Shown here in pieces: positions 19,791 through 43,260 of a DNA stretch of 59,381 nucleotides. This DNA is from a virus. The notes below the pieces were generated by a model. The model had not been told where the DNA came from, did not search any database, and saw only the letters and a program-made list of their open reading frames with translations. Within the stretch, counting starts at the first letter, position 1. Each line of letters starts with the position of its first letter. The translations under genes were made by a program, and so were the position numbers. Where the stretch lies: positions 1 through 59,381 of IMG/VR virus record IMGVR_UViG_3300042401_000753. One strand, written 5' to 3'.

Positions 19791-19856
19791 TTGCTTTGAC
19801 ATATACATTATATCACTTAGTATTATTTATCTTATCAATCTCAGTTAACTGAAAAA

Positions 19857-20363
19857 ATGCGCGTTAAAGATCATAACAAAGTATCTAGTTGGAATTTCTT
19901 TATGGAAGACATGAGTGGTGAAACCGTTCAAGTCCCGCCGCAAGGAGGCACCAATACAATTCAAGAACTGCTTACATTAGTATTGTCTTATATACAGACG
20001 TATGACAATCACACTAATAATGAGTATAGCAAACAACAGCGTATATACGCAGAAGAAGATGGTTTGTCTTTTAATGCCTATATGATTAAATTGATTGAAC
20101 ATCAATTCTGTCTTAGAAATAGTAATACTACACCTTGCTGGAGCGGTGGTGTAGGTGACACTATTCATAATGCTCTTACTAAAGTAGATGGATGGATTGA
20201 GCATACTCCTGAAGTTCTTCAGCAAAAAGTTCAAGCTGCTATTTCTTTTCTTACTCCCAGTAAGAGTAAAACGTTTGGTGGATGTTCTGTATGTGGTGGC
20301 AGTAAGGTTATGAGCAGGAGCTCAAACAATCTTGGCCGGGCTGGTAAGCTTAACAACATCTAA
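19857..20363 (+). CDS. Hypothetical protein, 168 aa
   Basis: First gene of the rightward block. The palindrome (19841..19852) lies 4 bases before its ATG. The middle is helical, and a C-x2-C group near the end (GGCSVCGGSKVM) may bind zinc. No family recognised. Confidence 0.7.
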   Translation: MRVKDHNKVSSWNFFMEDMSGETVQVPPQGGTNTIQELLTLVLSYIQTYDNHTNNEYSKQQRIYAEEDGLSFNAYMIKLIEHQFCLRNSNTTPCWSGGVGDTIHNALTKVDGWIEHTPEVLQQKVQAAISFLTPSKSKTFGGCSVCGGSKVMSRSSNNLGRAGKLNNI

Positions 20364-20367
20364 ACAA

Positions 20368-20694
20368 GTGAGTGTTCTAAGTGATCCGTATACACAAAAA
20401 GTTGTAGTAGATAAGATGAATGGCAAGTATCTTGATCTATTAGTAAAGAAAGATAAAAGGATTCAATATCTTACTACACAGGTAAAGAATTTAAAACGTC
20501 AGTTAACTGAGAAATATCCCAACAAAGAAAATGTAGGTTGGGTAAATAAACTAAAAGCTGAAACTGTTCCTTGTATTAAAAACTGCCGTAAATGCTGCGG
20601 CCAAGGACGGGTGGAAATCCAGAGCGGGCCATACATGAGGGAATGCCCTGAGTGCAATGGGACCGGAAAGCAAACCAACCAACCAAAACCATGA
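20368..20694 (+). CDS. DnaJ-type zinc-finger-like protein, about 108 aa
   Basis: The C-terminal part has two C-x2-C-x-G-x-G units (CRKCCGQGRV and CPECNGTGK) as in the DnaJ cysteine-rich domain, enough for one zinc site. A helical part with palindrome-encoded QLTEK comes before. No ATG suits; a GTG at 20368 just after the upstream stop is chosen, with a TTG at 20332 as the alternative. It may be a small chaperone-like or nucleic-acid-binding adaptor. Confidence 0.6.
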   Translation: MSVLSDPYTQKVVVDKMNGKYLDLLVKKDKRIQYLTTQVKNLKRQLTEKYPNKENVGWVNKLKAETVPCIKNCRKCCGQGRVEIQSGPYMRECPECNGTGKQTNQPKP

Positions 20695-20900
20695 ACGACA
20701 CCATCTACGAAACCCTCGAATCAGCAAAACAGGCTTGTAAAAAATACATTGAAGCGGTGCAAGCCCTTCAGTCCCAGTTTGGCATAAACATGGAGCTTAC
20801 CGGTTCCTGCGCCACCGCCATCTTCACCGGCCAGTATTGGGACGAGACGGGCCGACTTAAGAGTTTCGGATTCACTAACCGGGATTTAACAAAGCCATGA
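20691..20900 (+). CDS. Hypothetical protein, 69 aa
   Basis: MNDTIYETLESAKQACKKYIEA... starts in the stop of the previous gene (ATGA). A helix is followed by a beta hairpin (TGSCATAIFTGQYWDETG). Function unknown. Confidence 0.65.
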   Translation: MNDTIYETLESAKQACKKYIEAVQALQSQFGINMELTGSCATAIFTGQYWDETGRLKSFGFTNRDLTKP

Positions 20901-21094
20901 GTGACAGACCAGAAACACATTCATCAGACTTAAATAACATATACTCACACCTTCCTGCAACAATTCCCGCCGAGCGGAGAAAGGCATTTTTAATAAGTAT
21001 TATTAACCAATATAAATTTAATGAACGCGGACATGATAAAATTCCTCGCATCCTTCCTTGTCCTAATTCTTATTTACTTCCTGATAGGTTGTAA
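20897..21094 (+). CDS. Hypothetical protein, 65 aa
   Basis: Starts in the stop of the 69-aa gene (ATGA) and overlaps the next gene by 74 bases in another frame. No domain recognised. The overlap makes it less certain than its neighbours. Confidence 0.45.
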   Translation: MSDRPETHSSDLNNIYSHLPATIPAERRKAFLISIINQYKFNERGHDKIPRILPCPNSYLLPDRL

Positions 21095-21224
21095 AGCATA
21101 CAAAGAAGATAATTATAACAAATCAATCCTAGATCAACACAAGCTTGACACACAACAGTTTATAAACGAGCATCCTGACTTAGCAAAACATTTAATGAAT
21201 TACAACCAACAAACAAATGAGTGA
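21021..21224 (+). CDS. Small lipoprotein or membrane protein, 67 aa
   Basis: A hydrophobic helix (FLASFLVLILIYFLIGC) ends in a possible lipobox cysteine, followed by a charged soluble tail. The start could also be the ATG at 21033. It could be a small outer-membrane lipoprotein or membrane anchor; a spanin is possible but the endolysin lies far away. Confidence 0.55.
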   Translation: MNADMIKFLASFLVLILIYFLIGCKAYKEDNYNKSILDQHKLDTQQFINEHPDLAKHLMNYNQQTNE

Positions 21225-21714
21225 TACAAACACAGACTGCACCTGCTGGAGTTGCGCGGAAAAAGAATTTCAGTTAACTGACAAACCTTCTTCCCTTTCT
21301 GATAGTCTTTTGATTTCAGACCTTACAGCAACAAACGAAACACTGTATAGGCATAACAAAGAACTTCAGGAAAAAGTAAATGTTCTTGAAGGTATTTGTT
21401 ACTCTGGTAACATTACTTTTAAGTCAATTGACTATGGCCACGGATGTGAAGTTAAATGCGAGTGTGAACTAAATAGTAATAAGCCTACTGATCTTCCAAA
21501 CATGGTAGAAAATCCTCCGCATTATAACAACCATCCTAGCGGGGTAGAGTGCATTGAGATTACCAGGCATATGAACTTTAATCTTGGCAACGTCGTTAAA
21601 TATCTTTGGCGTTGTGAAGAAAAACAAAATTACCTTGAAGACCTAAAAAAGGCGGCTTGGTATCTTAACGACGAAATTGAAAAAATCGAAGAACAACGGG
21701 GTTTAATTAACTGA
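21217..21714 (+). CDS. DUF3310 family protein
   Basis: 165 residues. The C-terminal 65 residues match the DUF3310 pattern: NPPHYNNHPSGVECIEI, then FNLGNVVKYLWRCEEK, then YLEDLKKAAWYL. This domain is common in phages and lies near nucleotide-metabolism genes in some of them, but its reaction is unsettled. The N-terminal part has three cysteines (CTCWSC) and a palindrome-encoded QLTD. The last codons (INN-like region with TGA) resemble a decayed palindrome. Confidence 0.8.
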   Translation: MSDTNTDCTCWSCAEKEFQLTDKPSSLSDSLLISDLTATNETLYRHNKELQEKVNVLEGICYSGNITFKSIDYGHGCEVKCECELNSNKPTDLPNMVENPPHYNNHPSGVECIEITRHMNFNLGNVVKYLWRCEEKQNYLEDLKKAAWYLNDEIEKIEEQRGLIN

Positions 21715-21721
21715 AAATAAT

Positions 21722-22306
21722 ATGACAAGACAGATTACACCAACAGAAGCCTTCAAGTTAATGGAGGAATTGCAGGAAGCCCATTACAAGGCAGCACTAG
21801 ATAATCACAACATCAGTAAGATGGCAGCACTTACTGTCTTTGATGGTTCTGACAATCCAATGAATGCTATTGCAGCAGGCTTGCTATCAACAGGAGGAAT
21901 CCACGGACCCCTTACTGAAACGCGGGAGCTTCTGCGTATGTATAACCAAGACAAAGACTTTTGTATTGCCTACATGACTGACATGGTTAAGGGAGGAGGT
22001 AAAATCCCCGGCCTTGGTAATTCATTCTTTAAAGACAAGGTTGATCCAGCATTTAGTCCTACCCTTGAATTGTATGTGCAAACCTGCAATGATCTTGGAG
22101 AAGACCCTCTATTAACTAACTTTGCAAAAGACGCTAACCTTGCAATCGAACAAGCTAAAGGAGTTAACAAGAATCTATATCTAAACGCATCCGCTATTAC
22201 AGCAGGTATTACAGAACTACTGGGCGGATGCAAGTATATTGAGAACTGGTTCTTTATTGCAGGCCGTTCTAGGGCTTGGATTGAAATCATGGCAACAAAA
22301 CCATAG
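21722..22306 (+). CDS. Citrate synthase-like protein, truncated and lacking catalytic residues
   Basis: 194 residues, about half a bacterial citrate synthase. Three family blocks are in the right order: GLLSTGGIHGPLTETRELL (aligns with the H-G-G helix, His kept), KIPGLGNSFFKDKVDPAF (aligns with G-F-G-H-R-V-Y-K...DPR, His replaced by Asn) and YLNASAITAGITELLGG plus FFIAGRSRAWIEIM (aligns with the N-x-D region, Asp replaced by Ala). Normal enzymes join acetyl-CoA to oxaloacetate. With two of three catalytic residues gone, a binding or regulatory role is more likely than catalysis. Confidence 0.7.
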   Translation: MTRQITPTEAFKLMEELQEAHYKAALDNHNISKMAALTVFDGSDNPMNAIAAGLLSTGGIHGPLTETRELLRMYNQDKDFCIAYMTDMVKGGGKIPGLGNSFFKDKVDPAFSPTLELYVQTCNDLGEDPLLTNFAKDANLAIEQAKGVNKNLYLNASAITAGITELLGGCKYIENWFFIAGRSRAWIEIMATKP

Positions 22307-22334
22307 CAAATTGTAATTTAACCCCTTCCTGAGT

Positions 22335-22357
22335 AAGATGGTTTCGACCAGTCTTTT
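22335..22357 (+). terminator. Rho-independent terminator
   Basis: AAGATGGT and ACCA(G)TCTT pair around a stable TTCG tetraloop, with one bulged G, followed by TT. It closes the small-gene group before the tail-fibre genes. Confidence 0.65.
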
Positions 22358-22395
22358 AAAGTGACAAATCAATAATCCTCAGTTAACTGAAATTT

Positions 22396-24171: not shown

Positions 24172-24205
24172 TTCAGTTAACTGAAACTTTAAATACTTTA
24201 CTACT

Positions 24206-26611
24206 ATGGGCGTTCCTTATTCTATCTTTTGCTGCTTTAAATCTACAACCGAAGCAAGGCTTATTGACCTTGAGGCTGGCGGCACAGGCACCTACAGCAC
24301 AGATGTTAATACCATGCTGGCATCTGCCAACAACGCTGCGATCAGATCCGCCATCGGCCTCGGCCAAACGGACGCGCCGACGTTCCTTGGATTAGCCTTA
24401 ACTGGCACCACGGATCAGTTGCTAAAAATTAACGCAGGCAACTGGATTGGCACTGACAGTTCACAGGTGTATTTATACAGCTCTGGTTATGGCGCAGCAG
24501 TTGTATCTTTAAATAACGGCGGCGGAGCACTGGCAATGCGATCCGACTGGACTTTAGGGTGGACTAATTCAGGCACAGCCGCAGGCACAATAGATATTCG
24601 TTTAGCCCGAGACGCCGCCGGAATCCTAGCCCAGCGGAACGGGACCAACGCGCAGGCGTTTCGGGTTTATAATACGACAGACGCCGGAATCACTAATTAC
24701 GAGCGAGTAAACTTAGAGTGGTCTGGTGGTCAAGCTATTTTGCAAACGGTCAAAGGCGGCACCGGAGCAGCACGTGATTTAATATTAAGGTCGAATGCTA
24801 ACCTTATATTTGGTGTAGCTAATGGTGGCCAATGGTTTGTTCATGGCGGAACTGCAAATTTCTGTGCATTTACAGACAACACTTTTGACATTGGGTCTAG
24901 CGGAGCAAATAGGCCGAGAAATTTGTATTTGAGTGGATCAACAATTTCTGTTGGCTATTTCAGAACAACAAGAGACTCTGGCATTATATTTGCAAGCTCC
25001 GCAACAGATCCGCTTTCAGGAACGCACTTAACACTCCGAGCAAGCGCCAACGCTGTAAATACTCTTTGCATCGGAGACACCACCTCCGCATTTCCCGCGA
25101 TCAAGCGCAACGGGACCGGGATTGATATTAGGCTAGCAGATGATTCAACCTACGCCCCATTAACCGCCGCGAGTCTCAGCTTAGGGGTGGCAGTTCCAAC
25201 GGCAGACCTCGACATCGCCAAGACTTGGAACATGGCTCCCATCACCGTCACCGGAGCCAGCGGAACCGGAACAGTAGTAACTCTTACCTTCGCAACTCAG
25301 TCAACTGCGATTCCTATTGGCTCAACGATTGTAGTGGCAAATATTGGTCCTGCTGGATACAACGGAACATATGTTGTCACAGCATCAAGTGTTACTTCAG
25401 TATCGTATTTAAACGCAACTACTGCTTCTTATGCTTCTGTAGGAACGATTGAGCGTCTCTTTACTTCTGTTAAGCTAAACGTCACGGACACGGCAAGTAA
25501 CGCGGCGTCTCTATTGATGGACTTGCAGGTTGGTGGGGTGAGTAAGTTTAAGTTTGACAAAACCGGCGTAATGACGACGATAAACGTGTATGCCGGGGGG
25601 GCGGTTGGGTATGCGTTGTTCAACGATACAGGATTAGGATTACGCAGTGCAGCGGTTATTGGATGGACGGCGGGAATTGCAGTTAATGCCCAAGACACCA
25701 TCCTTGCCCGAGACGCCGCCGGAATCCTAGCCCAGCGGAACGGGACCAACGCGCAGGCGTTCCGGGTTTATAATACCTACGATACAGCAGGAGCTAATTA
25801 CGACAGGCTTTCGTTTTTCCACGCAGGGGGGCAGGCCACAATAGCAACTGAAGGATTTGGAGCAAATGCTGCAAGTTCTCACCTTACTTTAGCGGCTGGA
25901 GGAACAACAAGATCAATTTTCTTTCAGACTGCTGGAAGTGCTAAATGGTTAATTAATTCGGCAGGAAATTTCTTGGCTCAGACACACAACACCTACGACA
26001 TCGGCGCTGTTGGCGGGGTAAATTGTCCGAGGAATATTTTCGTCGCTCAAACTGTCCGAGCCAATGCATTCCAGTTAAATGCCACCAGTCATGTCTATGG
26101 CACTGTTGATGGCATTATTGGGTTGTATAATTCAGCTCTTAATAACTTTGACCGACTTCAACTAGGCGGCACCACCTCCGCATTCCCCGCGATCAAGCGC
26201 AACGGGACCGGGATTGAGATTAGGCTGGCGGATGATTCTAATTTTGCTCCTTTGAGTTCTGGCGCTCTTACTATTGCTGGAGGTGGCGCAAATATTACAG
26301 GCATCGTTAATGGGACGGCATTTATATCTGGTTTTTATATTCAAACCAACACGCAATTTATGTTTGGAACAGGCGGGGTTGGAGATGTCGCGTTGCAAAA
26401 AAACGCCACCGGAGTTGTTGAAATCAACAGCACAACAGCCGGAACATTCCGCGATCTTCGCGTCCGCTCCGTAATTCAGCAACCGCCAGCCAGTATCACA
26501 CCAGCTAGTAACGGAGACCTTGTTGTAGAAGCCACCAGCAATACCCTACTGACCTTTAAGTTTAAAGGCAGTGATGGCACAGTCCGCTCCGGCACAATGG
26601 TAGTCGCATAA
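24206..26611 (+). CDS. Long tail fibre protein, 801 aa, with internal repeats
   Basis: Glycine-, asparagine- and threonine-rich. Two internal duplications are seen: DAAGILAQRNGTNAQAF (24605..24675 and 25706..25776) and FPAIKRNGTGI-DIRLADDS (25078..25146 and 26170..26238). The C-terminus (GDLVVEATSNTLLTFKFKGSDGTVRSG) is a known end of phage trimeric tail fibres. GC content is higher than in neighbours and no exact palindrome lies in the 3.2 kb around it, consistent with recent gain or module exchange. Confidence 0.75.
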   Translation: MGVPYSIFCCFKSTTEARLIDLEAGGTGTYSTDVNTMLASANNAAIRSAIGLGQTDAPTFLGLALTGTTDQLLKINAGNWIGTDSSQVYLYSSGYGAAVVSLNNGGGALAMRSDWTLGWTNSGTAAGTIDIRLARDAAGILAQRNGTNAQAFRVYNTTDAGITNYERVNLEWSGGQAILQTVKGGTGAARDLILRSNANLIFGVANGGQWFVHGGTANFCAFTDNTFDIGSSGANRPRNLYLSGSTISVGYFRTTRDSGIIFASSATDPLSGTHLTLRASANAVNTLCIGDTTSAFPAIKRNGTGIDIRLADDSTYAPLTAASLSLGVAVPTADLDIAKTWNMAPITVTGASGTGTVVTLTFATQSTAIPIGSTIVVANIGPAGYNGTYVVTASSVTSVSYLNATTASYASVGTIERLFTSVKLNVTDTASNAASLLMDLQVGGVSKFKFDKTGVMTTINVYAGGAVGYALFNDTGLGLRSAAVIGWTAGIAVNAQDTILARDAAGILAQRNGTNAQAFRVYNTYDTAGANYDRLSFFHAGGQATIATEGFGANAASSHLTLAAGGTTRSIFFQTAGSAKWLINSAGNFLAQTHNTYDIGAVGGVNCPRNIFVAQTVRANAFQLNATSHVYGTVDGIIGLYNSALNNFDRLQLGGTTSAFPAIKRNGTGIEIRLADDSNFAPLSSGALTIAGGGANITGIVNGTAFISGFYIQTNTQFMFGTGGVGDVALQKNATGVVEINSTTAGTFRDLRVRSVIQQPPASITPASNGDLVVEATSNTLLTFKFKGSDGTVRSGTMVVA
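24605..24675 (+). repeat. Internal 71-bp duplication in fibre gene, copy 1
   Basis: Repeats at 25706..25776 with one mismatch. A second repeat family lies at 25078..25146 and 26170..26238. Such near-identical blocks allow recombination between fibre segments. Confidence 0.9.
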
Positions 26612-26618
26612 CAATCTC

Positions 26619-26807: not shown

Positions 26808-26814
26808 TAATATT

Positions 26815-26976: not shown

Positions 26977-26985
26977 ACAAATAAT

Positions 26986-27396: not shown

Positions 27397-27419
27397 AATC
27401 AGTTAACTGAAATATAACA

Positions 27420-27644: not shown

Positions 27645-27665
27645 CCCCAAAACATATACACTAAA

Positions 27666-27696: not shown

Positions 27697-27703
27697 CGTA
27701 ATT

Positions 27704-27847: not shown

Positions 27848-27866
27848 ACTCAGTTAACTGAAACAC

Positions 27867-30185
27867 ATGAAACAACTTTTTCCAAATACCGACGACATCT
27901 ATGATCGTTACCTAGACCTTCGCAACAACGAGCCTTACAAGAAAAAGCGCGAAGAGTATCTGCGTAACTACAATCGTCAAGATTGGAAACGTAGCAAAGA
28001 TCAAAACTGTAAAAAGCGCGACGCTAACTTTGGACAATTTAAATCCAAAATGGATGCGGCAATGAACGTGTTCATTAACGTCCTTACTGAACGCAATAGC
28101 AATGTCAAGATTGTCCCACGATACGCACAAGCAGGAAAAGTAAAAACTGTCTCAGACAAAATTACTTCAGCATTTCACCGTCACTTTATTAAACCATGGG
28201 AAGATCGTTTCATGGATGAAGTGATGATTGCTTTTGACATGGTATTCTTTGGAAAAGGAATTGAGCATTGGCCGACAGCAGGTTGTGTCTATACAGAAAA
28301 CATTCCTGTTGAAAGAGTCTTTCCAGATTCCAACGCAGGAATGAATACAAAGAAATGGGCGTATGTATTTATTGAAAAAGACTTTACAGTTTCAGAACTG
28401 TATTCAATTATTGAAGATGACTCATCTGATTACGACTTTGATAAAACATACCTTGCTGAAATTCTTGAACAAGTAATTTCTTACTCAAGGACACAAAACG
28501 GAACAGAGTCTTCCAAAAATATCAGCGGAGATATTTCCTCTTCTACCCGTGATGAAGTTATTACTCTTGTCTACGCTTACGTAAAAGAAAACTTTAACAA
28601 AGAGAATAAAGTTTCTTTGTATGTATTCCCAGCAGAGCGTAAAGAGTGGAGAGGACAAGGAAGTAAACCTAAGCTCAAGTATCTTCTTGAGGAGACTGAG
28701 TATTGTGAATGCATCTCAAATGTTGTAGCCGTCAGGGCATACCAGATTACACGAAGCTATTGGAAGTTTAATTCTTTTGCTCAACAAATTTATCTTTCTA
28801 CAATGCTTTACGATAAAGCAATGTCGTTAGTAGTCCGTGCAGCAAAGCGCAATCTTATTCTTTACTTCAAGTCTGATAATCCAGATACTTCCAAGAAACT
28901 CCTTAACCAGACTGACGATGAAGTTCAGGTTGTTAATACAGGGGTAGAATACATGACTACCTCACAAAACAGCAACACTCAAGAGGTTGTTGAAGTAGTG
29001 AGGCAGATTATGATTGATACTGAGAACAATCAAAACATTGCTCAAGCTCCGGGATCACAGAATGTAAAGGGTTACGCAATCACAGCACAAGAAGCTCAAA
29101 TCCGCGCACAGAAATCAGGAGAAGCTGAATCTCTTAATGTTAAGATTCTTATGAATCTTGATCTTGTTCTTTATAAGGAGATTTACCGCCGGGCAATATC
29201 TATTGGAGCTTCTGAGAAACTTAAGAAATCTCTTAAAGCATTTAAAGAAGAGTTGGCAGGATACAATATTACAGAAGAGGAATACAGCATTGATAATCTT
29301 TACTTTGCTCCGTCATTCTTAAACGGCGGAAGCCAATCTACTAGGATTGGTAATGCTCAAGCAGTTCTGCAAGCTCTTATGCAAAGTCCTACGAGTCCGG
29401 GGCAAGAACAAGCTCAAAGAGATTTAGTTGCCGCGCTTGTTGGTGTAGATATGGTTGATGATTACATTGCAGAAAAAATGGGAGTTAATCCAATTATTTC
29501 CAAGGTTGGTTCCGAGAACGAAGACTTGGATAATCCAAATGTTAACCCTGGTAACATCCCAGTGCTGCCAGATGACAAGCATCTTGAAGAATTGCCATTC
29601 CATATTGACGATTACAACAAAAAGCTGACTACTGCTGGCAATATTATCAAGGTTGCCTTGCAAGTTCCTAATAAATTTCGTCAAATTATGCTTTTGCAGT
29701 CTGCTGCTGACCTAATTATGGGTCAAGACAACAAGGGCGGGCATATTCAGGCGCATATTCAAGCAGCTTCTAATTCTGAAGCCAATGCAGACGCTCTTAA
29801 GCCAATGATTGCTCAATTTATGCAGCTTCAGGCAGCACAAGACCAACTTACACAGCAAATTTCTCAGTTAAATGAGAAGATTGACCAAGGAATGCAAGAA
29901 AGCGACATTAATAATGAGGAGTTGCGTCATATGCAGAAAAAGAATCAGATAGTCGAGACACATCTTGAGACAATTAACAACATTAGCACTGCTAAGGACA
30001 TTGAAAAGAGGGCTTCCATGAATGAACAACGAAAAGAAAAGGCAGAAGCTAACACAGAGAAGACTATTACAGACCTTGCAACCCAACAAACAAAAGCACA
30101 GCAAGACATAGAAACAAAACAAAAACAAAATGAGCTTAAAATCCAACAACAAGCCGCCGCGAAGCCCGCAGGAACTTCAGGTTGA
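27867..30185 (+). CDS. Portal protein
   Basis: 772 residues, large as in P22-like and related podovirus portals. The N-terminal basic segment (YDRYLDLRNNEPYKKKREEY), the alpha/beta core and a long Gln/Glu-rich C-terminal helical region (about 650-760) fit a portal crown and barrel. It forms the dodecameric ring at the capsid vertex through which DNA is packed. Context agrees: scaffold and major capsid follow. A palindrome variant encodes S-QLNEK in the C-terminal helix. The palindrome ends 5 bases before the ATG. Confidence 0.85.
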   Translation: MKQLFPNTDDIYDRYLDLRNNEPYKKKREEYLRNYNRQDWKRSKDQNCKKRDANFGQFKSKMDAAMNVFINVLTERNSNVKIVPRYAQAGKVKTVSDKITSAFHRHFIKPWEDRFMDEVMIAFDMVFFGKGIEHWPTAGCVYTENIPVERVFPDSNAGMNTKKWAYVFIEKDFTVSELYSIIEDDSSDYDFDKTYLAEILEQVISYSRTQNGTESSKNISGDISSSTRDEVITLVYAYVKENFNKENKVSLYVFPAERKEWRGQGSKPKLKYLLEETEYCECISNVVAVRAYQITRSYWKFNSFAQQIYLSTMLYDKAMSLVVRAAKRNLILYFKSDNPDTSKKLLNQTDDEVQVVNTGVEYMTTSQNSNTQEVVEVVRQIMIDTENNQNIAQAPGSQNVKGYAITAQEAQIRAQKSGEAESLNVKILMNLDLVLYKEIYRRAISIGASEKLKKSLKAFKEELAGYNITEEEYSIDNLYFAPSFLNGGSQSTRIGNAQAVLQALMQSPTSPGQEQAQRDLVAALVGVDMVDDYIAEKMGVNPIISKVGSENEDLDNPNVNPGNIPVLPDDKHLEELPFHIDDYNKKLTTAGNIIKVALQVPNKFRQIMLLQSAADLIMGQDNKGGHIQAHIQAASNSEANADALKPMIAQFMQLQAAQDQLTQQISQLNEKIDQGMQESDINNEELRHMQKKNQIVETHLETINNISTAKDIEKRASMNEQRKEKAEANTEKTITDLATQQTKAQQDIETKQKQNELKIQQQAAAKPAGTSG

Positions 30186-30460: not shown

Positions 30461-31837
30461 ATGAAATATAGACTCCATCAACAACGTATTGAAGCTCCAG
30501 CAGATGACAGCCAACGAAGCGGCAACGCAATTAAAATTGGAAGCCCATCCGCCGGACCAATCAATGACGAATCAGATGACGCCGGAGACAGCGGTGTTAG
30601 TAATCGTGATCTTGATGTTTTTAACGCTTATCACAAGCTCGACCAACGAACAGGAGAGCGAAGAGGATCAACCCTTGGCAAATTTGCAAACCAAGTTGAC
30701 GAAGAAGAGGAAGACGGCAAGGAAGACAGCAAAGAAGAAACCTTCAAGCAAGAAGATACCTTCAGCAAAGACGATACCAAAAAAGAACTGACAGACCAAG
30801 AGCTTCTTGATCTTGATGAGACAAAACTTGTAAATGCAAAAGGTCAGCAGGTTAGTTCTGCAACTTCTGCTACAATTAAAAAGTTTAAAGAGTCTCTTAC
30901 GAAAAAGACCGCGACTATTGCAGAGCTTGAAGAGAAACTAAAGGCTGGTCCTCAGTTAACTGAAGAATCTCCAGAGATTAAACTTATCAAAGAAGAAAAC
31001 GCGAAGCTCAAGAAACAGATCGACGATGAATACTTTGAAAAGTCGGATGCATTCAAACAAGCCTTCGTTGCTCCAGTTCAAGAATCGATTAATAAACTTA
31101 ATCAATACTTTACTCACCTTACTGAAGATGATGGCTCTGCCAAAGAACTAAACAGTCTATTTGCCAAAGCAGGCAAGGCAGCAAAAGCCGGAGACCGTGT
31201 AGGCTTTGCAAAGCTTCTTGATGAGATTGCAGAAGACCATGTAGATGGTGGAACTGCAATGAAGTCAGTCTTTGGTTCTGATATGCTTGAGTGGTTTAAA
31301 CTTACACAAGCTCACGAAAAAGCATTCAGTGATAAAAACGAAGATCGTAAAAAGATTGTAACACGCACACTTGCAGAGCAACGCAGAAGCAATGTCTCTT
31401 CTATTGATCGTGACATCCAAGACAGCGTTTCTCAGTTTGAGTTTTCCAAGAAAGCAGTCCTTGATGGACTTGAAGGAGAAGAAAAAGAAAACTACACAAA
31501 GCTTTACAAGGACCGCTTTAATAAAGTCACTGAATCCATTGGAGAGTTCTCTATTACTGGTAAAGTAAACAAAGACCTGACCGATGTAATTAATGATGGA
31601 GTTATTGCTCCAGCACTTAAGCATGAGCTTAACATTGCATGGGCTGGATTTAAAGACTCAATGAATAAAGTCTCAATGCTTGAGAAAGAACTGGCAGAAG
31701 TAAAAGCCAGGCTTGGAAAAGTAAGCCGTGAACCCGGAGAAAGAATTGGAGCAAGGTATACAAATACTACTTCATCAAAGCCAACAGAAAAACCTCGCAG
31801 TCGCATCTTTGCAGCATTAAGTGGGGCGGAGGATTGA
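30461..31837 (+). CDS. Capsid scaffolding protein
   Basis: 458 residues from the ATG at 30461, chosen for the leader CCTAACCAACAAA. Highly acidic and coiled-coil rich (EEEEDGKEDSKEETFKQEDT, then SLTKKTATIAELEEKLKAG), as usual for scaffolds, with a basic C-terminus (PTEKPRSRIFAALSG) that may contact the shell. Placed directly before the major capsid gene. The palindrome encodes QLTEE near residue 165. Confidence 0.75.
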   Translation: MKYRLHQQRIEAPADDSQRSGNAIKIGSPSAGPINDESDDAGDSGVSNRDLDVFNAYHKLDQRTGERRGSTLGKFANQVDEEEEDGKEDSKEETFKQEDTFSKDDTKKELTDQELLDLDETKLVNAKGQQVSSATSATIKKFKESLTKKTATIAELEEKLKAGPQLTEESPEIKLIKEENAKLKKQIDDEYFEKSDAFKQAFVAPVQESINKLNQYFTHLTEDDGSAKELNSLFAKAGKAAKAGDRVGFAKLLDEIAEDHVDGGTAMKSVFGSDMLEWFKLTQAHEKAFSDKNEDRKKIVTRTLAEQRRSNVSSIDRDIQDSVSQFEFSKKAVLDGLEGEEKENYTKLYKDRFNKVTESIGEFSITGKVNKDLTDVINDGVIAPALKHELNIAWAGFKDSMNKVSMLEKELAEVKARLGKVSREPGERIGARYTNTTSSKPTEKPRSRIFAALSGAED

Positions 31838-32011
31838 TTTCTAACCCCTGAATTGGTAATATTAATTATCTTTCAAATATGCGGTTGGCCCGCTAAGGCC
31901 AAAAGACTTCAATTAAGAAGCGCAAGACTAATAGGGTATCTCAGTTAACTGAGGTTTGCTTGCCACCCAAATCAAGCGAATCACAAATTAACTTAGATAC
32001 CCTATTATATT
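31838..32011 (+). promoter_or_regulatory. Leader of the major capsid gene with long-range stem
   Basis: ATAGGGTATCT (31931..31941) pairs perfectly with AGATACCCTAT (31995..32005), closing a 53-base loop that contains an exact palindrome (31941..31952). The stem ends 6 bases before the capsid ATG, so it could control capsid translation or stabilise its mRNA. Confidence 0.6.
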
Positions 32012-33541: not shown

Positions 33542-33589
33542 TCCCGGAAAGCTCAGTTAACTGAAATAAACTTAAAATAGAAAAATAAA

Positions 33590-34171: not shown

Positions 34172-34185
34172 TAAAAATTCGTTAT

Positions 34186-34262: not shown

Positions 34263-34268
34263 TAAGAT

Positions 34269-35098: not shown

Positions 35099-35120
35099 TA
35101 TCAGTTAACTGAAAAACATT

Positions 35121-36350: not shown

Positions 36351-36357
36351 TATTTTT

Positions 36358-36912
36358 ATGATTCCAGAAAGACAATGTGTTCCAGTTGATTGCCAAGGCC
36401 AAGTAAAAGAAGGCACAAACATCTCTGTGTTTAAAGCCGGTGCTGATTGTCAGTATCAGCTTACCGGAAAGATGCGCGTTCGTGGAGGAGCGATACCAGT
36501 TCAGTTAACTGAGAATAAAGTAGAACTCCGTGACGGATCAGTTGATTATCCAATCGTTCTTCCTAATCTGCAAAAGTCCAATGCAGCATTTGTTGCAGAA
36601 ATCCTTATCCGCCTTCCTGACGGAACTATCGCAGCATGGGACTTGGGTAACTTCCTTGGAGAAAAGAAACTTACCCTTGTTGACGGACAAGCAACATTCA
36701 ATAACGATTACTCCTCTCATTTGTTTTCTGGAGAAATCTGCGAAGAAGATTGCAGTGGAGTTGAGTCTGCTCTTGGAGTTAAGCGTATTGTTAAAGTGTG
36801 CGTAGGCCAGCCTGATACTATTATGTATCAAATTTGCCGCATTCCAGTTGGATGTAGCACAGACGAAGCAGCGCAAACCTGTGATCCATTAACTTCCATT
36901 TCAGGACAATGA
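36358..36912 (+). CDS. Virion protein, 184 aa
   Basis: Starts at 36358 (MIPERQCVPVDCQG); an upstream ATG at 36316 lies inside the preceding gene. A beta-rich domain with several cysteines (CEEDCSG, CVGQ, CRIPVGC), typical of small tail or neck proteins of this genome. The palindrome encodes V-QLTEN near residue 50. Specific role unknown. Confidence 0.65.
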   Translation: MIPERQCVPVDCQGQVKEGTNISVFKAGADCQYQLTGKMRVRGGAIPVQLTENKVELRDGSVDYPIVLPNLQKSNAAFVAEILIRLPDGTIAAWDLGNFLGEKKLTLVDGQATFNNDYSSHLFSGEICEEDCSGVESALGVKRIVKVCVGQPDTIMYQICRIPVGCSTDEAAQTCDPLTSISGQ

Positions 36913-37619: not shown

Positions 37620-38991
37620 CGCGATAGAGTCTGGTGCAGCAATTCTTGTTGTTGATGCTAATTGCACTCAACGTCAATTGTCAGGCAATGGACTTGCATA
37701 CAGCGAAGATGGCTCTGCCGCTAATACTGATGGTTCATCCAGAAGTGGTCATATTAAGCTTAACCCAGAAAAATCTGGAGGAGCCAAAGGAGTTCTTTCC
37801 CGTTTAAGTGATGGGACAATGGTGACAATTGGAGAAGATGCTCCTGACGGAAGTGTATTCTATAAAGTATCTGGACAATGGAAAGCTGGAACTCAAACAG
37901 AAAGTAAGACAACCTTTCTTGATACTGAACTGCTTGAATATAGCAATGCCATTGCTACATTTGGATGCGGTCCTAATGGAACTGTCAAGCTTGGCAAGAT
38001 GGCTCCATGCCTAGACTCTTTGGTTTATTACAATGAGGCAGGAAGGGTTGTATGCCTTAACATGGATGATCTTGCTTTGCTTTTGTTTAAATCTCTATGC
38101 GCTAAAGCAATTCCATGGGATGGAGTATCTTGTATTAACGGATTGATGGCTTGCACCCCTGACGGGATGCGTCTCGTTAAACCAATTGGAGGAAAGACTT
38201 TGTATGGTGATCCAGAAAATGCATCATGCTGGGTTATGAACGATCTTAATGCCCCTAGTGGTAATCAACTCAAGCTTATCTTTAAATATACGGGAGGTAT
38301 TCAATACTTTACCGTTCCTGAGAAGATGGCTTACATGACTCTCAAGGTTTGGGGAGCGGGAGGTTCTTGGGATTATGCAGGTCCAGCCGCACGCGGTGGT
38401 CTTGGTGGATTTACTACCCTTAAATACCCAGTTGTTCCCGGCCAGATTTATGCTGTAGTTGTTGGCTATGGTGCTGATCTTCAGGTTGGTCAATTCTATG
38501 GATTTGGAGGTTCTCAATCTGCTGACGGACATAACCATGCTGGCGGCGGACTTGCTGGTGTATTTACTGGAAACACAAACGTCCTTGCAACTGATAGCGC
38601 AAGAGCGGTTGCTATTGCCGGTGGTGGTGGTGCTGGTTCAGGAACTGCCCCTAATACAAATATTGCATCTGGAGGAAGTGGTAACGCTTCTACCGCTGGC
38701 GGATTGACTACTATGCAAGGCAGTAATGGGACGAATGGCCAATTTACCGGAACTGGAGGTTGCGGTGGTGGTTACGCTGGCGGAACCAGTATTAACCGAT
38801 ATGGATTTGGTGGTTCTGGCTATGTGTCTCCGCTAGGAACACTTGGTTCTATTCAGTTTGCAGACGACACTTCTCCTAATAACATTACAGACCTTCCTCC
38901 TAATAGCACTGACCCTGATTGGGATGCTACCTATAAAGCTGGTATGTCAGGCAAATCCGGCCTTGTTGTTGTAGTGTTCTCAGTTAACTGA
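37552..38991 (+). CDS. Cysteine-rich start, glycine-rich end virion protein (tail adhesin)
   Basis: 479 residues. The N-terminus is Cys-rich (NHCQCQTCLPTC). The middle repeats C-x-P-D-G motifs, as in its neighbours. Residues about 260-470 form a Gly-rich domain (AGGGGAGSGTAPNTNI, GGCGGGYAGGTS) like polyglycine-helix tips of phage adhesins. It starts inside the glycosyltransferase gene. The exact palindrome provides the last codons and the TGA stop (FSVN-stop). Confidence 0.7.
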   Translation: MNHCQCQTCLPTCGHPSPASCPDAIESGAAILVVDANCTQRQLSGNGLAYSEDGSAANTDGSSRSGHIKLNPEKSGGAKGVLSRLSDGTMVTIGEDAPDGSVFYKVSGQWKAGTQTESKTTFLDTELLEYSNAIATFGCGPNGTVKLGKMAPCLDSLVYYNEAGRVVCLNMDDLALLLFKSLCAKAIPWDGVSCINGLMACTPDGMRLVKPIGGKTLYGDPENASCWVMNDLNAPSGNQLKLIFKYTGGIQYFTVPEKMAYMTLKVWGAGGSWDYAGPAARGGLGGFTTLKYPVVPGQIYAVVVGYGADLQVGQFYGFGGSQSADGHNHAGGGLAGVFTGNTNVLATDSARAVAIAGGGGAGSGTAPNTNIASGGSGNASTAGGLTTMQGSNGTNGQFTGTGGCGGGYAGGTSINRYGFGGSGYVSPLGTLGSIQFADDTSPNNITDLPPNSTDPDWDATYKAGMSGKSGLVVVVFSVN

Positions 38992-39000
38992 TTTTCAGTA

Positions 39001-40806
39001 ATGGAAATATTTGAATCCTATTCAAGTTATTACGGGGTAGATACCTACCCAGTAATGCCTTCTCGTGGTAGCCGCTCTGTGTTCTCTCACAGGGCGGTTA
39101 ACCGTTCTTCATACAAGCTTATAAATGATACAAGGCCACCGTTTGTAGAGATTCAATTAAAGTTTCAGTCAACTGAGGAAGAGTATACATTCCGCAATGC
39201 AGCAATCAGCGGAGTTAAGTTCTACGAGGGAGAGGTTAGCTTGTTCTCTTCCTTCCTGATAGTCTCTGTAGGAGACAGGATATTTGCAGGATACATTAAA
39301 CCTGCTTTTATTGAATTCTTTACTATCTATCAAGGACTTGATCCTCAATGGATGCATCAATTCTTTTGTCAGGCACTTAACATTATTACATTCAACAACA
39401 GTAATGATCTACCTCTTTACTGGACGGGTGATGTTGTTAAGCCTGCCAAACTTGTATATGATTCAGCATATACACAAGGATCACCAATGCGCGTTAGCAA
39501 CGTAGCTACATATGCACACGGAAGGATATTCTCAGCAACAAAAGAAAACCTTTTGTATGCATCTAACTTTATCTTGTCACAAGGACTAGGTATTGATAAA
39601 CGCGAAGCTGTATTGTCATATACTGAATCAGAATATCCTTCTTCTGGTGATGGATTTGGAGCGCCGTCAGAGATGGGGCAGATTACAGGAGTTACATCAA
39701 TTCCTCAATCTAATACCCTGAATGGACATGGAGATGTTATTGTTACTTGTCGTAACGGAATGTTCTCTATTGCACCAAACAGGAAGCTTCGCAATCAATG
39801 GACTGAAGACCCTGAGATGCAGAAGTATGTGTTGATGGGCAAGGGTTGTGTATCTAATAACTCTATTGCTCAGTTTGCAAACCAGATCTTTTATCGTGAT
39901 TCTAATGGTGGTATATCTTCTTTAATGATGGATATTGCTAACTACCAGCAGCAGAGCGAGCTTCAATCTGTATCAACTCCAGTTGATTACTATACTGATT
40001 ACGATAAGAACTCTCCAGATATTCAGTTCTGTCATTCGCTAGTTACTGACAGGCGGATGCTAATGGGAGTTAATTATAATAGAGAGAAGTCCTCACATAT
40101 GGGGATTCACCGCTTTGCTTCAGGGATGGTTTCAGCTTGTTTGCAGGTTATTAACGGCAAGACAACAATGCAATGGGAGGGCTTGTGGACTGGTCCTCGT
40201 ATCACTGGCTCTGCAATAACAAACATTGGAAACAACAAACGCACTATTGTATCTTCGTTTGATTCTGATAAACAGAATAGGTTGTATTACATTAATGAGC
40301 TTGAAAGGACTGACGACTTTACCAAAGGTATTCATAGAAAGATTCGTAGCTCAGTTACATATTCTAGTGTATTCTTTGACGAAGCTCAAGACTCGCAGAT
40401 CGTCCCTAAGCGCATTGAGCAAGTCGAGGCTTTGCTTATTCAATCCAATGTAAATACATTCACAGGTTCTTATCAAACAGATGGGATGAGCGAAGAGTAT
40501 CCTATAGATTTTCAGTTAACTGAAATCAATGGATGCGGCAAAGGTATTGCAAGGGTTGTATCTGATGAGATTTGCGGAAGGAGTAAATCAGGATCAAAGC
40601 AAACAATTAACAAGTCAGGGTTCTTCTTTTCTGTTACATTGAGAATGGAAGGATCTGCTCGTATTGCAAAGATTGTTATTGCTGGATCAGCAGAAGATAC
40701 AGAAGGATTCTCTTCAACCAAATGCTCAGAAGTTCAATCACCGGGTATTACTAAACTATGCTTTACTGGATCATGTAACTCAGGAGACTTTAACTACATA
40801 TTCTAA
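39001..40806 (+). CDS. Tail nozzle/stabilisation protein (T7 gp12-like)
   Basis: 601 residues, beta-rich, matching podovirus tail tubular B or stabilisation proteins in length and in gene order before the gp11-like gene. It starts with an ESYSSYYGVDTYPVMPSRG tract. The role is inferred from context and general composition. The palindrome encodes FQLTEI near residue 505 and a Q-S-T-E variant near residue 56. Confidence 0.6.
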   Translation: MEIFESYSSYYGVDTYPVMPSRGSRSVFSHRAVNRSSYKLINDTRPPFVEIQLKFQSTEEEYTFRNAAISGVKFYEGEVSLFSSFLIVSVGDRIFAGYIKPAFIEFFTIYQGLDPQWMHQFFCQALNIITFNNSNDLPLYWTGDVVKPAKLVYDSAYTQGSPMRVSNVATYAHGRIFSATKENLLYASNFILSQGLGIDKREAVLSYTESEYPSSGDGFGAPSEMGQITGVTSIPQSNTLNGHGDVIVTCRNGMFSIAPNRKLRNQWTEDPEMQKYVLMGKGCVSNNSIAQFANQIFYRDSNGGISSLMMDIANYQQQSELQSVSTPVDYYTDYDKNSPDIQFCHSLVTDRRMLMGVNYNREKSSHMGIHRFASGMVSACLQVINGKTTMQWEGLWTGPRITGSAITNIGNNKRTIVSSFDSDKQNRLYYINELERTDDFTKGIHRKIRSSVTYSSVFFDEAQDSQIVPKRIEQVEALLIQSNVNTFTGSYQTDGMSEEYPIDFQLTEINGCGKGIARVVSDEICGRSKSGSKQTINKSGFFFSVTLRMEGSARIAKIVIAGSAEDTEGFSSTKCSEVQSPGITKLCFTGSCNSGDFNYIF

Positions 40807-41345
40807 TGGATAACGACAACACACAACCACTACTGGTAGCAGGAAAGCTTTCAAAAGAATGCTATGAATCTCTTCAAGACTTTGTTGATGAGCTTCCATC
40901 TGTTTTAAAGTTTCCAATTGATGCTGTATCAGTAATTCAAGGGGCGGCTGGAACAGATGGAGTCAAAGGAGCCAAGGGAGATAAAGGCGACAAAGGATCA
41001 AAGGGAGATACCGGAGAAGGAGTTACTCTCGACTTCAGGATGATTGATATAGCAAACAATGCAACATATGTTGATTTCCCTATTTTTAATGGATGGGAAA
41101 ATGCTGTTTATACAATTCGCCACAAAGGTCAAATCGGCTCAACTGATCCGCTTATTGTAAGTCATAATCCTAGCGTAGAAGGCGTTGTAGGCGTAGGAAC
41201 CGTGATAGCATTGTATCTTAGCCCCTTGCCAACTACCATCAGATGCTACTTCGTTTACTCCGGGGGGCCAGGAGGAGGTGGAACCGGCCATTTATCAGCA
41301 GTCCCTGACGCTTTCCACATCCTTCAAATCTCTTCTTACAAATGA
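40806..41345 (+). CDS. Collagen-like repeat protein, 179 aa
   Basis: Contains a short collagen-like Gly-x-y stretch (GVKGAKGDKGDKGSKGDTGE, about residues 55-75), which trimerises in phage fibres, followed by a beta-rich domain and a Gly-rich end. It lies between two tail proteins, sharing 1 and 4 bases with them. Likely a small tail appendage or fibre. Confidence 0.75.
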   Translation: MDNDNTQPLLVAGKLSKECYESLQDFVDELPSVLKFPIDAVSVIQGAAGTDGVKGAKGDKGDKGSKGDTGEGVTLDFRMIDIANNATYVDFPIFNGWENAVYTIRHKGQIGSTDPLIVSHNPSVEGVVGVGTVIALYLSPLPTTIRCYFVYSGGPGGGGTGHLSAVPDAFHILQISSYK

Positions 41346-42244
41346 GCCAAGTTAACATAACAGTTGCAGAGTTCATTGATATGTATTCCGATATTATCGG
41401 ATACAGTTCAGAAAGTCAATGTGCATACGACCTTATTAATAAGGCTCGTATTATTGCGTATGCTAGTGGAGACTGGGTAGGAACTATTTCTTATGAGCGT
41501 ATCGTTGTTAACGGATGTAACTTTATGTTGCCATCCAAGTTTGAAACAATCAAACGCGCAAAGAACGCTGATGGTATTGACATTAATGTAGATGGACTAC
41601 TTGATATTGGCGCATTCAATGAATGCTGTGAAGATGTAATTGTTCGTATCAGCAAAAGAACTTATCTTCCCTTTCAGTTAACTGAGAATATCCCACTTAC
41701 CTTCTGGGCAGTTAATAACAAAGACGTAGGCTCAGAGGTCCGCGTATCCTACATGGATATTGCAGGATCACTTAATGATGAAACCATTCTCTTGCTGCAT
41801 CAAAAGCCAACCCGTCTTATTAATATCCCAATTACAATTAACCGGATTAGTAAAAAGGTTACAATAGGAATGGTTGGAGTTGAGCAATGCGGAGCAAACA
41901 AGGATTACATTCCAGCAAACGAGAAAGCTCCTACTTATAACGTATACTCCTCAAACATTACTGACTGCACTATTGCAGCAGAGGTTAAGTATAAGTTTAT
42001 TCCTTACACAGTAAATGATGAGAATGCTGTATTGGATATTAATCCAGAAGCTCTTTCTTCCCTGATTGCTGCTGTGCAGGTAAAGGATAAAAAGAAAGAT
42101 AACTGGATTCCTCAATACGCAGCTTCCGTCAAGCTTGCTACTGACTTCCTTAAAGCAGAACTCAAGAACGAAACCTCAATAGCCTTTGGTTTCAAGTCAG
42201 TCAACACAGACGACAGATTTTTTAATTCACTCGAACAACCTTAA
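41342..42244 (+). CDS. Tail adaptor protein (T7 gp11-like candidate)
   Basis: 300 residues. The position between nozzle and internal virion proteins, the length and the alpha/beta composition fit a tail tubular or head-tail adaptor protein. No motif is decisive. The palindrome encodes FQLTEN near residue 112. Confidence 0.5.
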   Translation: MSQVNITVAEFIDMYSDIIGYSSESQCAYDLINKARIIAYASGDWVGTISYERIVVNGCNFMLPSKFETIKRAKNADGIDINVDGLLDIGAFNECCEDVIVRISKRTYLPFQLTENIPLTFWAVNNKDVGSEVRVSYMDIAGSLNDETILLLHQKPTRLINIPITINRISKKVTIGMVGVEQCGANKDYIPANEKAPTYNVYSSNITDCTIAAEVKYKFIPYTVNDENAVLDINPEALSSLIAAVQVKDKKKDNWIPQYAASVKLATDFLKAELKNETSIAFGFKSVNTDDRFFNSLEQP

Positions 42245-42248
42245 TATT

Positions 42249-43244
42249 ATGGGAGCAGCAATCGCAGCATTTGCATCAATAGGGACAGCAGCATACGGAG
42301 CCTATCAAAATAAGAAAGCCGGGGATGCTAACGAAGAAGCTCAGGCACTAAGCCGTAAAGATTACGCGGAAAGACTTAGGGCTGCCGGTATTGCAGCTAA
42401 AGAGCTTAACGATCAATACAACGAGATTGTAAAGGACCGTCCTAATCTTAGCTGGGAATCTTTTGTTGGAGATAAGATCAAAGCAATCAATGATCCTTAC
42501 TTGCGTCAGTTTTATACTAACGCAAAGAAAGAGGACTTTGATCGTATGCGTGAGTTTGCTCAAACAGCAACTACTGATAATATTGAGAACCTCCAATCTG
42601 CTGCCGACAAACTATCAAACGGCAGATGGAAAGAAATCATTACTAAGCGTGACGATCTTGTATTAAACACAGACGCCGCCTCACGGATGGCGCGGACTTA
42701 TGAACTAGCCGCTCCAGTAAGGACCGGCGCATCTACAGTAAAATATGATAGCAAAGGTCAACTTGTTGAAGGGCAAAGAGCAGACAAGCAAGCTTTCTCC
42801 GTCGCGCAAGAAGTGCAGACGCAAATCGAACAGGAGCAAAAGCAAGACCTTCGGCAGCTTGAAAATGATCGACTTAACGCCGCAACCTCTCAGAGCGCAA
42901 AAGCATCCCAGTTCATGCAGTTCTTTGACGCTACAGGTTATGCAACTGCCGCTGAATCTGATAGATCAAATCTCGTTAATAGTTACCAAGCTATTGATGA
43001 GCAGCGAGCTTTTGATATTTACAAAATGTTTGCAGGTGCGTCTGCTGGTATCGCGCCAGTCCAACCAACTTATCAGAGCGAGGGAGCTGGTAATGAACTT
43101 ATTTCTGCTGGGGTCAAGCTCGGTTCTCAGTATCTTGGCAATAAGCTTAATACTAAAAACCCGCCAATGAACGGCAATGGTGGATACGGATCAGCGGGCG
43201 GGAACGCATACACCAACGAATACAAGAATCCATACACCTCCTAA
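42249..43244 (+). CDS. Internal virion protein, 331 aa
   Basis: Starts at 42249 (MGAAIAAFASIGTAAYGAYQNKKAG); an upstream ATG at 42186 lies inside the previous gene. The short hydrophobic Gly/Ala-rich start followed by a long Gln/Glu/Lys helix (QIEQEQKQDLRQLEND) is typical of injected core proteins such as T7 gp14. Likely forms part of the DNA ejection channel. Confidence 0.65.
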   Translation: MGAAIAAFASIGTAAYGAYQNKKAGDANEEAQALSRKDYAERLRAAGIAAKELNDQYNEIVKDRPNLSWESFVGDKIKAINDPYLRQFYTNAKKEDFDRMREFAQTATTDNIENLQSAADKLSNGRWKEIITKRDDLVLNTDAASRMARTYELAAPVRTGASTVKYDSKGQLVEGQRADKQAFSVAQEVQTQIEQEQKQDLRQLENDRLNAATSQSAKASQFMQFFDATGYATAAESDRSNLVNSYQAIDEQRAFDIYKMFAGASAGIAPVQPTYQSEGAGNELISAGVKLGSQYLGNKLNTKNPPMNGNGGYGSAGGNAYTNEYKNPYTS

Positions 43245-43260
43245 TCTCAGTTAACTGAAT

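What the first reader, a model, noticed from the sequence alone, without database searches (positions are those of the whole stretch)
19841..43260. Palindrome placed a few bases before start codons of late genes and recA
In the rightward block, TCAGTTAACTGA is followed by a short A-rich gap and ATG before the genes at 19857 (4 bases), 22396 (5), 27420 (9), 27867 (5), 35121 (8) and 43261 (2), and within 25 bases at 24206 and 33590. On the other strand it sits 2 bases before recA (7043). These genes have no Shine-Dalgarno. The site covers the ribosome-binding zone, so it may act on translation (as RNA) or be tolerated there as a spacer.
Basis: seen in the sequence. Interest (0 to 1): 0.75.

Follow-up and report, generated by a model that had tools for sequence, protein, structure and literature searches.

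The report
Evenly spaced genome-wide palindrome in phage
A complete phage genome carries the same 12-letter palindrome 42 times, spaced unusually evenly through genes and gaps alike; it sits before some start codons only because genes there are packed tightly, so it is a genome-wide DNA mark rather than a translation signal, and what reads it is unknown.

Summary
The translation reading fails. In gaps holding a site, distance to the next start equals random placement within the gap (18.4 vs 18.1 bp, P=0.52), and 8 of 11 sites lie nearer the preceding stop. Half of all copies lie inside genes. 65 of 66 genes lack a Shine-Dalgarno, with or without a site. Selection acts on DNA: all 21 QLT[DE] tetrapeptides in the proteome use exactly CAG-TTA-ACT-GA, and the central TTAA does not vary as an RNA loop should. 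The copies repel each other: spacing CV is 0.52 against 1.19 under a frame-aware null, no gap is under 411 bp, mean 1.41 kb. No bacterial genome searched and no other virus found carries it in number. The anatomy matches, per strand, an unrelated motif in Nostoc phages A-1 and N-1, and resembles Haemophilus uptake sequences, but differs from mycobacteriophage stoperators. Best reading: a dispersed double-stranded recognition site for a symmetric DNA-binding protein acting on the whole phage chromosome. The reader protein and the exact job are unproven.

The parts
426..437 (.). exact site, intergenic
1526..1537 (.). exact site in CDS 493-2004 (QLTE/D frame)
2394..2405 (.). exact site directly after the stop of gene 2406-3485
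3067..3078 (.). exact site in CDS 2406-3485
3812..3823 (.). exact site in CDS 3487-4461
4485..4496 (.). exact site directly after the stop of gene 4497-4772
5124..5135 (.). exact site, intergenic
6076..6087 (.). exact site in recA, residues about 320-323, C-terminal to the conserved core (52-294)
7046..7057 (.). exact site filling the 15-bp gap between helicase and recA
8275..8286 (.). exact site in SF1 helicase CDS
9752..9763 (.). exact site in CDS 9478-9813
10839..10850 (.). exact site in CDS 10646-11368
12176..12187 (.). exact site, intergenic or in a + ORF
13227..13238 (.). exact site, intergenic
14453..14464 (.). exact site inside a strong hairpin (-28.8 kcal/mol)
15793..15804 (.). exact site, intergenic
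16749..16760 (.). exact site inside a strong hairpin (-27.3 kcal/mol)
19430..19441 (.). exact site, intergenic (divergent region)
19841..19852 (.). exact site 4 bp before ATG 19857
20499..20510 (.). exact site in CDS 20416-20694
21270..21281 (.). exact site in CDS 21217-21714
22379..22390 (.). exact site 5 bp before ATG 22396
24173..24184 (.). exact site 1 bp after stop, 21 bp before ATG 24206
27399..27410 (.). exact site 2 bp after stop, 9 bp before ATG 27420
27850..27861 (.). exact site 2 bp after stop, 5 bp before ATG 27867
30952..30963 (.). exact site in CDS 30461-31837
31941..31952 (.). exact site, intergenic, 59 bp before ATG 32012
33553..33564 (.). exact site 11 bp after stop, 25 bp before ATG 33590
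35101..35112 (.). exact site 2 bp after stop, 8 bp before ATG 35121
36501..36512 (.). exact site in CDS 36316-36912
38980..38991 (.). exact site whose TGA is the stop of CDS 37552-38991; 9 bp before ATG 39001
40512..40523 (.). exact site in CDS 39001-40806
41674..41685 (.). exact site in CDS 41342-42244
43247..43258 (.). exact site 2 bp after stop, 2 bp before ATG 43261
45383..45394 (.). exact site in CDS 44916-52883
48746..48757 (.). exact site in CDS 44916-52883
50546..50557 (.). exact site in CDS 44916-52883
52915..52926 (.). exact site in CDS 52883-54808 (terminase-like), N-terminal end
54757..54768 (.). exact site in CDS 52883-54808, C-terminal end
55781..55792 (.). exact site in CDS 55585-56004
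56518..56529 (.). exact site 14 bp before the RusA gene start (56503)
58325..58336 (.). exact site in primase-helicase CDS, upstream of the conserved region
5373..5384 (.). one-mismatch copy TCAGTTAACTGC
9101..9112 (.). one-mismatch copy TCATTTAACTGA
10076..10087 (.). one-mismatch copy TCAGTTAAATGA
10140..10151 (.). one-mismatch copy TCATTTAACTGA
13776..13787 (.). one-mismatch copy TCAGTTAATTGA, forms a long-stem hairpin with a second half-site
17158..17169 (.). one-mismatch copy TCAGTAAACTGA
18765..18776 (.). one-mismatch copy TCAGTTAAATGA
18915..18926 (.). one-mismatch copy TCAGTTAAATGA
29864..29875 (.). one-mismatch copy TCAGTTAAATGA
39165..39176 (.). one-mismatch copy TCAGTCAACTGA, in frame as QSTE
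44160..44171 (.). one-mismatch copy TCAGTCAACTGA, QSTE
47210..47221 (.). one-mismatch copy TCAGTCAACTGA, QSTE
47513..47524 (.). one-mismatch copy TCAGTCAACTGA, QSTE
49175..49186 (.). one-mismatch copy TCAGTCAACTGA, QSTE
52295..52306 (.). one-mismatch copy TCAGTCAACTGA, QSTE
57920..57931 (.). one-mismatch copy TCAGTAAACTGA
54802..55332 (-). candidate DNA-binding protein (Cys-rich N-terminus like phage HNH proteins, C-terminal helix-turn-helix); link to the site not shown
   Evidence: weak hits only
3487..8849 (-). phage recombination genes: exonuclease (3487-4461), RecA/UvsX (5919-7043), UvrD-like helicase (7059-8849); possible readers of the site, untested

Best explanation
TCAGTTAACTGA is a genome-wide recognition site read in double-stranded DNA by a symmetric, probably dimeric, protein. 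The phage keeps one copy about every 1.4 kb on both strands, in genes and gaps alike, and never closer than about 0.4 kb. Shown: the copies, their even spacing, selection at the DNA level, no attraction to start codons, and confinement to this phage among the sequences searched. Inferred: that a protein reads it and that it acts on the phage chromosome as a whole. My ranking of the job: chromosome organisation, marking or silencing by a phage DNA-binding protein (about 0.35); a recombination or replication signal that also spreads by molecular drive, as uptake or Chi-type sequences do (about 0.25); stoperator-like transcription blocking (about 0.15); other (about 0.25). The copies before late genes are the same sites placed in the only non-coding room there is. 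The confidence given is for the first sentence, not for any one job.
For: 42 exact copies, 0.007 expected. Spacing CV 0.515 vs 1.19 under a null that respects reading frame and intergenic share, minimum 411 bp, none of 5000 simulations as regular; about 10 neighbour gaps under 400 bp expected at random, 0 seen. All 21 QLT[DE] tetrapeptides are CAG-TTA-ACT-GA although TTA is 16% of Leu codons and 0.43 such peptides are expected; all 6 QSTE formed at T6C copies are CAG-TCA-ACT-GA. Core TTAA largely fixed and half-site spacing fixed. Weak extra conservation extends symmetrically on both flanks. Sites fall outside the matched cores of RecA, primase and terminase. Two unrelated phages have the same per-strand statistics with another sequence.
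Against: No binding protein has been identified; the best candidate (54802-55332) has only sub-threshold helix-turn-helix hits and a poor model. Some intergenic copies sit in hairpins (13776, 14453, 16749), so part of the set may also act as RNA terminators. No relative was found, so conservation of site positions could not be tested.
Confidence: 0.7

Rival explanations
1. Translation element: the palindrome covers the ribosome-binding zone and controls initiation of late genes and recA as an RNA hairpin.
For: Nine genes have a site within 25 bp upstream of the start; the RNA can form a 4-bp stem with UUAA loop (-1.6 kcal/mol).
Against: Distances to starts are random given the gap (P=0.52), 8 of 11 sites nearer the stop; the stem is weak; leaders with and without sites have equal A content and lack of SD; half the sites are inside genes; the loop hardly varies.
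Confidence: 0.04
2. Stoperator-like repressor sites: a phage repressor binds all copies and blocks transcription in the prophage.
For: Dozens of dispersed sites in one phage genome; dimeric operators are palindromic; a helix-turn-helix candidate exists.
Against: Cluster A stoperators are asymmetric and mostly intergenic or at gene edges (14 of 15 in Trixie, 12 of 14 in RedRock), while here half are inside genes and the site has no direction; no integrase or repressor among the proteins scanned.
Confidence: 0.15
3. Recombination or replication signal: a Chi-like or priming site read by the phage's own exonuclease, helicase and RecA or by its primase, and spread by biased recombination (molecular drive).
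For: The phage encodes RecA, UvrD-like helicase, exonuclease, RusA and a primase-helicase. In Nostoc phages A-1 and N-1 spacing is regulated per strand, with orientation alternating, as a strand-specific process would need; a palindrome serves both strands at once. Haemophilus uptake sequences have similar density, relatively even spread and terminator pairs and are explained by drive (PMC7811141).
Against: A 12-nt palindrome is longer than any Chi or primase site I know of (own knowledge); no direct evidence.
Confidence: 0.25
4. Host-derived motif: the phage copies a host chromosome-organising or uptake sequence.
For: Such motifs exist in bacteria, for example Noc-binding sites (PMC4331003, abstract) and uptake sequences.
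Against: At most 3 copies per genome in 395 Bacteroidota genomes; the extended 16-mer hits only 27 stretches in the collection of 84,980 species genomes. The host is unknown and may not be in the sample.
Confidence: 0.08
5. Peptide-level selection for QLT[DE], or a protein repeat.
For: 21 in-gene copies all encode QLT[DE].
Against: 21 of 21 use one codon set (probability about 10^-35 by codon usage); half the copies are non-coding; proteins are unrelated.
Confidence: 0.01

Closest known systems
Dispersed motif of Nostoc phages A-1 and N-1 (KU234533, KU234532; PMC4916379)
   Same: About 41 copies per strand in a 65-68 kb phage; mean same-strand spacing 1.5-1.7 kb, minimum 368-596 bp, CV 0.41-0.70; inside genes and between them.
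   Different: Different, asymmetric sequence (CCCGGAGTCA / CCCGGAATCA); orientation alternates; many close inverted pairs; no shared genes by tblastn. Published as 43 and 21 motifs, called promoters or stoperators.
DNA uptake sequences of Haemophilus and Neisseria (USS/DUS)
   Same: About one per kb, relatively even, under-represented in constrained coding sequence, some copies paired in terminator hairpins (PMC7811141; hairpins here).
   Different: Asymmetric, in naturally competent bacteria; no uptake machinery is known for a phage.
Stoperators of cluster A mycobacteriophages
   Same: Many short protein-binding sites spread over one phage genome.
   Different: Asymmetric, mostly intergenic, oriented (PMC6550527).
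SPbeta repeated element (SPBRE) bound by MrpR
   Same: Repeated site of one phage regulator.
   Different: 15 bp, ten ChAP-seq peaks, all in promoter regions (PMC10516654).
Noc-binding sites of Bacillus
   Same: Specific sequences scattered around a chromosome that organise it (PMC4331003, abstract); palindromic, from own knowledge.
   Different: Cellular chromosome, far sparser; no ParB/Noc homologue found here.

Membership tests
Translation/ribosome-binding element | fixed or preferred distance to start codons | tested here: not met
   mean 18.4 vs null 18.1 bp, P=0.52; 8 of 11 nearer the stop
Translation/ribosome-binding element | restricted to leaders | tested here: not met
   21 of 42 inside CDS
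Cluster A stoperators | asymmetric, oriented relative to transcription | tested here: not met
   perfect palindrome, no orientation
Cluster A stoperators | mostly intergenic or at gene edges | tested here: not met
   21 of 42 in CDS vs 1 of 15 (Trixie) and 2 of 14 (RedRock)
Cluster A stoperators | encoded immunity repressor and lysogeny genes | tested here: inconclusive
   none among proteins scanned; most genes have no known family
DNA uptake sequences (USS/DUS) | about 1 copy per kb, evenly dispersed, coding and non-coding | tested here: met
   1 per 1.41 kb, CV 0.515
DNA uptake sequences (USS/DUS) | inverted pairs serving as terminators | tested here: inconclusive
   hairpins at 13776, 14453, 16749 include half-sites
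DNA uptake sequences (USS/DUS) | recognised by competence machinery | not testable with these tools
   phage genome, host unknown
Nostoc phage A-1/N-1 dispersed motif | per-strand even spacing with same-strand repulsion | tested here: met
Nostoc phage A-1/N-1 dispersed motif | same sequence or shared genes | tested here: not met
   different motif; no tblastn hit at E 0.01
Noc/MatP-type chromosome sites | dispersed palindrome | tested here: met
Noc/MatP-type chromosome sites | cognate ParB/Noc or MatP protein | tested here: inconclusive
   none recognised among scanned proteins
Chi-type recombination site | modulates a helicase-nuclease | not testable with these tools
   genes for exonuclease, helicase, RecA present

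The most novel reading that the evidence does not exclude
Some unrelated phages keep a private recognition sequence at one copy per strand every 1.4-1.7 kb, with active exclusion below about 400 bp, through coding and non-coding DNA: a self-marking or processing code of the phage chromosome, read by its own recombination, replication or packing machinery. The palindrome here and the alternating motif of the Nostoc phages would be two solutions of the same per-strand requirement.
Probability: 0.3. Interest if true: 0.85.

Novelty: new variant of a known kind. Interest (0 to 1): 0.62.

Why it matters
Phage genomes are short of space, yet this one spends residues in about 20 proteins to keep a 12-bp site. 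If the site marks or organises the phage chromosome, it is a handle on how a phage tells its own DNA from the host's, packs it, or recombines it. The per-strand regularity shared with two unrelated cyanophages turns an oddity into a testable class: a simple statistic (same-strand spacing, and codon-forced peptides) can find other members.

Tried and rejected
Start-codon attraction (rejected). RNA hairpin with free loop (rejected). Peptide selection (rejected). T6C variants as stop-codon avoidance (rejected from the coordinates: all six lie in the same frame as the exact in-gene sites and change Leu to Ser; one search shows six QSTE). Host motif (no support). Relatives by helicase, terminase and profile searches: none beyond a single shared gene plus a DUF3310 hit. 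L127's CCTGCGCAGG is a protein repeat, L152's an A/T run. L155's TTGCAACCGGTTGCAA (14 copies of the core in 32 kb) looks intergenic, an operator-like set rather than the same thing. Structure prediction of the candidate binder: mean pLDDT 39, not usable.
Full report
OBSERVATION. TCAGTTAACTGA occurs 42 times in the window; no copy appears in 100 dinucleotide shuffles and a Markov model expects 0.007. The window is a complete circular virus record, 59,254 bp unique, with a 127-bp terminal repeat. Two further starts lie close behind a site: 39001 (9 bp) and 16736 (12 bp). Beyond the exact copies there are 16 one-mismatch copies, of few kinds: T6C six times, the strand-equivalent pair G4T/C9A six times, T6A twice, two others.

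NOT A START-CODON ELEMENT. By my gene calls (66 ORFs, some uncertain) 21 exact copies lie inside coding sequence and 21 outside. In 11 co-directional gaps with a site, the mean distance to the downstream start is 18.4 bp; placing the site at random in the same gap gives 18.1 bp (P=0.52). Eight sites are nearer the upstream stop, two nearer the start, one is equal. In the compact late block five sites begin 1-2 bp after the previous stop codon. Late-block gaps with a site measure 16, 19, 22, 23, 34, 48, 89 and 174 bp; most positive gaps without one measure 4-9 bp, so the small gaps look like ordinary gaps plus the site. Leaders with and without a site have equal A content (0.42 vs 0.43 over 20 bp), near-equal folding energy, and 65 of 66 lack a Shine-Dalgarno.

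SELECTION IS ON THE DNA. Inside genes the exact site can be read without a stop in only one frame, CAG-TTA-ACT-GA. The proteome has 21 QLT[DE] tetrapeptides where 0.43 are expected, and all 21 use exactly these codons, although TTA is 16% of Leu, CAG 34% of Gln and ACT 41% of Thr; the chance of that is about 10^-35. All six QSTE tetrapeptides are CAG-TCA-ACT-GA, the T6C variant. The sites fall where proteins tolerate them: after the conserved core of RecA, before the matched region of the primase, at the two ends of the terminase-like protein. In the helicase the site lies in a poorly conserved stretch whose L and D are shared by the nearest relatives. As an RNA hairpin the TTAA would be a free loop, but of 53 TCAGNNNNCTGA matches 42 have TTAA, six TCAA, two TAAA and three look like chance. 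Conservation fades symmetrically into the flanks.

EVEN SPACING. Mean spacing is 1.41 kb, CV 0.515, minimum 411 bp, maximum 3.36 kb. A null that keeps the number of intergenic and in-gene sites and allows only stop-free frames gives CV 1.19 and minimum about 15 bp; none of 5,000 simulations is as regular. About ten neighbour gaps below 400 bp are expected at random and none is seen. Density is 1 per 1.15 kb in the leftward block and 1 per 1.67 kb in the late block. Intergenic DNA is favoured moderately (21 of 42 against 29% of allowed positions, P=0.003).

WHO ELSE HAS IT. No close relative was found in the collections searched: the phage shares a 30-36% helicase with many contigs and almost nothing else. 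None of these carries the palindrome in number. In 395 Bacteroidota genomes the maximum is 3 per genome, and the extended 16-mer occurs in only 27 stretches of the collection of 84,980 species genomes. The no-SD, A/C-rich leaders suggest a Bacteroidota host (inference).

A MATCHING PATTERN ELSEWHERE. Looking for a yardstick I measured Nostoc phages A-1 and N-1, whose repeated motif was published as 43 and 21 copies and called a promoter or stoperator (PMC4916379). I count 82 and 83 copies of CCCGGAGTCA and CCCGGAATCA, about 41 per strand. Orientation alternates far more than chance (56 vs 41.5, P about 0.001; 66 vs 41.9, none of 20,000 shuffles). Same-strand spacing is 1.5-1.7 kb on average, CV 0.41-0.70, never below 368 bp, while opposite-strand neighbours can be 16-21 bp apart. 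In the first 50 kb of A-1, 33 of 60 copies are inside genes. A palindrome is a site on both strands at once, so the three genomes obey the same per-strand rule with different sequences and no shared genes. In 194 records tested only these three, and L155 in part, show a two-strand dispersed motif. Haemophilus uptake sequences have similar density (about 1 kb), relatively even spread, avoidance of constrained genes, and terminator pairs, explained by molecular drive (PMC7811141); here three intergenic copies also sit in strong hairpins. Stoperators of Trixie and RedRock, scanned with a consensus recalled from memory, are asymmetric and nearly all intergenic or at gene edges.

MECHANISM. The anatomy (short perfect palindrome, duplex-level selection, both strands, exclusion distance) is best explained by a symmetric DNA-binding protein acting on the whole chromosome. 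Which protein is not shown. Candidates are the Cys-rich plus helix-turn-helix protein 54802-55332 (sub-threshold hits; poor model) and the phage recombination and replication proteins. Even spacing by itself does not separate benefit from drive.

LIMITS. Gene calls are mine; a few intergenic labels (426, 2394, 12176) could change. The gap test uses 11 gaps. The comparison phages were chosen because a paper described a repeated motif in them, so they say nothing about how common the pattern is. No experiment or relative tests function.

Noticed in passing
window 4331-18642 (GTGACCG at 4331, 13033, 13811, 14493, 14886, 15529, 16094, 16448, 17119, 18642): A second repeat, about GCGTGACCGAAAT (ten clear copies), always on the + strand of the leftward block and mostly between genes; looks like a directional control element.
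   Followed up: no
Nostoc phages A-1 and N-1 (L238+L242, L241+L243): 82 and 83 copies of CCCGGAGTCA / CCCGGAATCA with alternating orientation and strong same-strand spacing; published counts were 43 and 21. Close inverted pairs can form hairpins.
   Followed up: partly
L155 (IMGVR_UViG_3300045541_000097): 16-bp palindrome TTGCAACCGGTTGCAA; its 12-bp core occurs 14 times in 32 kb, apparently between genes; operator-like.
   Followed up: partly
window 13776, 14453, 16749: Site copies embedded in strong hairpins (-27 to -29 kcal/mol), terminator-like, built partly from extra half-sites.
   Followed up: partly
window 54802-55332 -: Protein with the Cys-rich N-terminus seen in phage HNH proteins but a helix-turn-helix instead of a nuclease at the C-terminus.
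   Followed up: partly
window 21722-22306 +: Short protein matching the C-terminal domain of citrate synthase (Pfam E 1.2e-6), unusual in a phage.
   Followed up: no
window 24605-24675 and 25706-25776; 25073-25161 and 26165-26253: Near-identical GC-rich repeats about 1.1 kb apart inside gene 24206-26611, of different composition from the rest of the genome.
   Followed up: no
MAG Co_bin.11 (G006; L210, L218, L228): All three of its TCAGTTAACTGA copies are the 16-mer TCTCAGTTAACTGAGA, three of only 27 such stretches in the genome collection; perhaps a small regulon.
   Followed up: no
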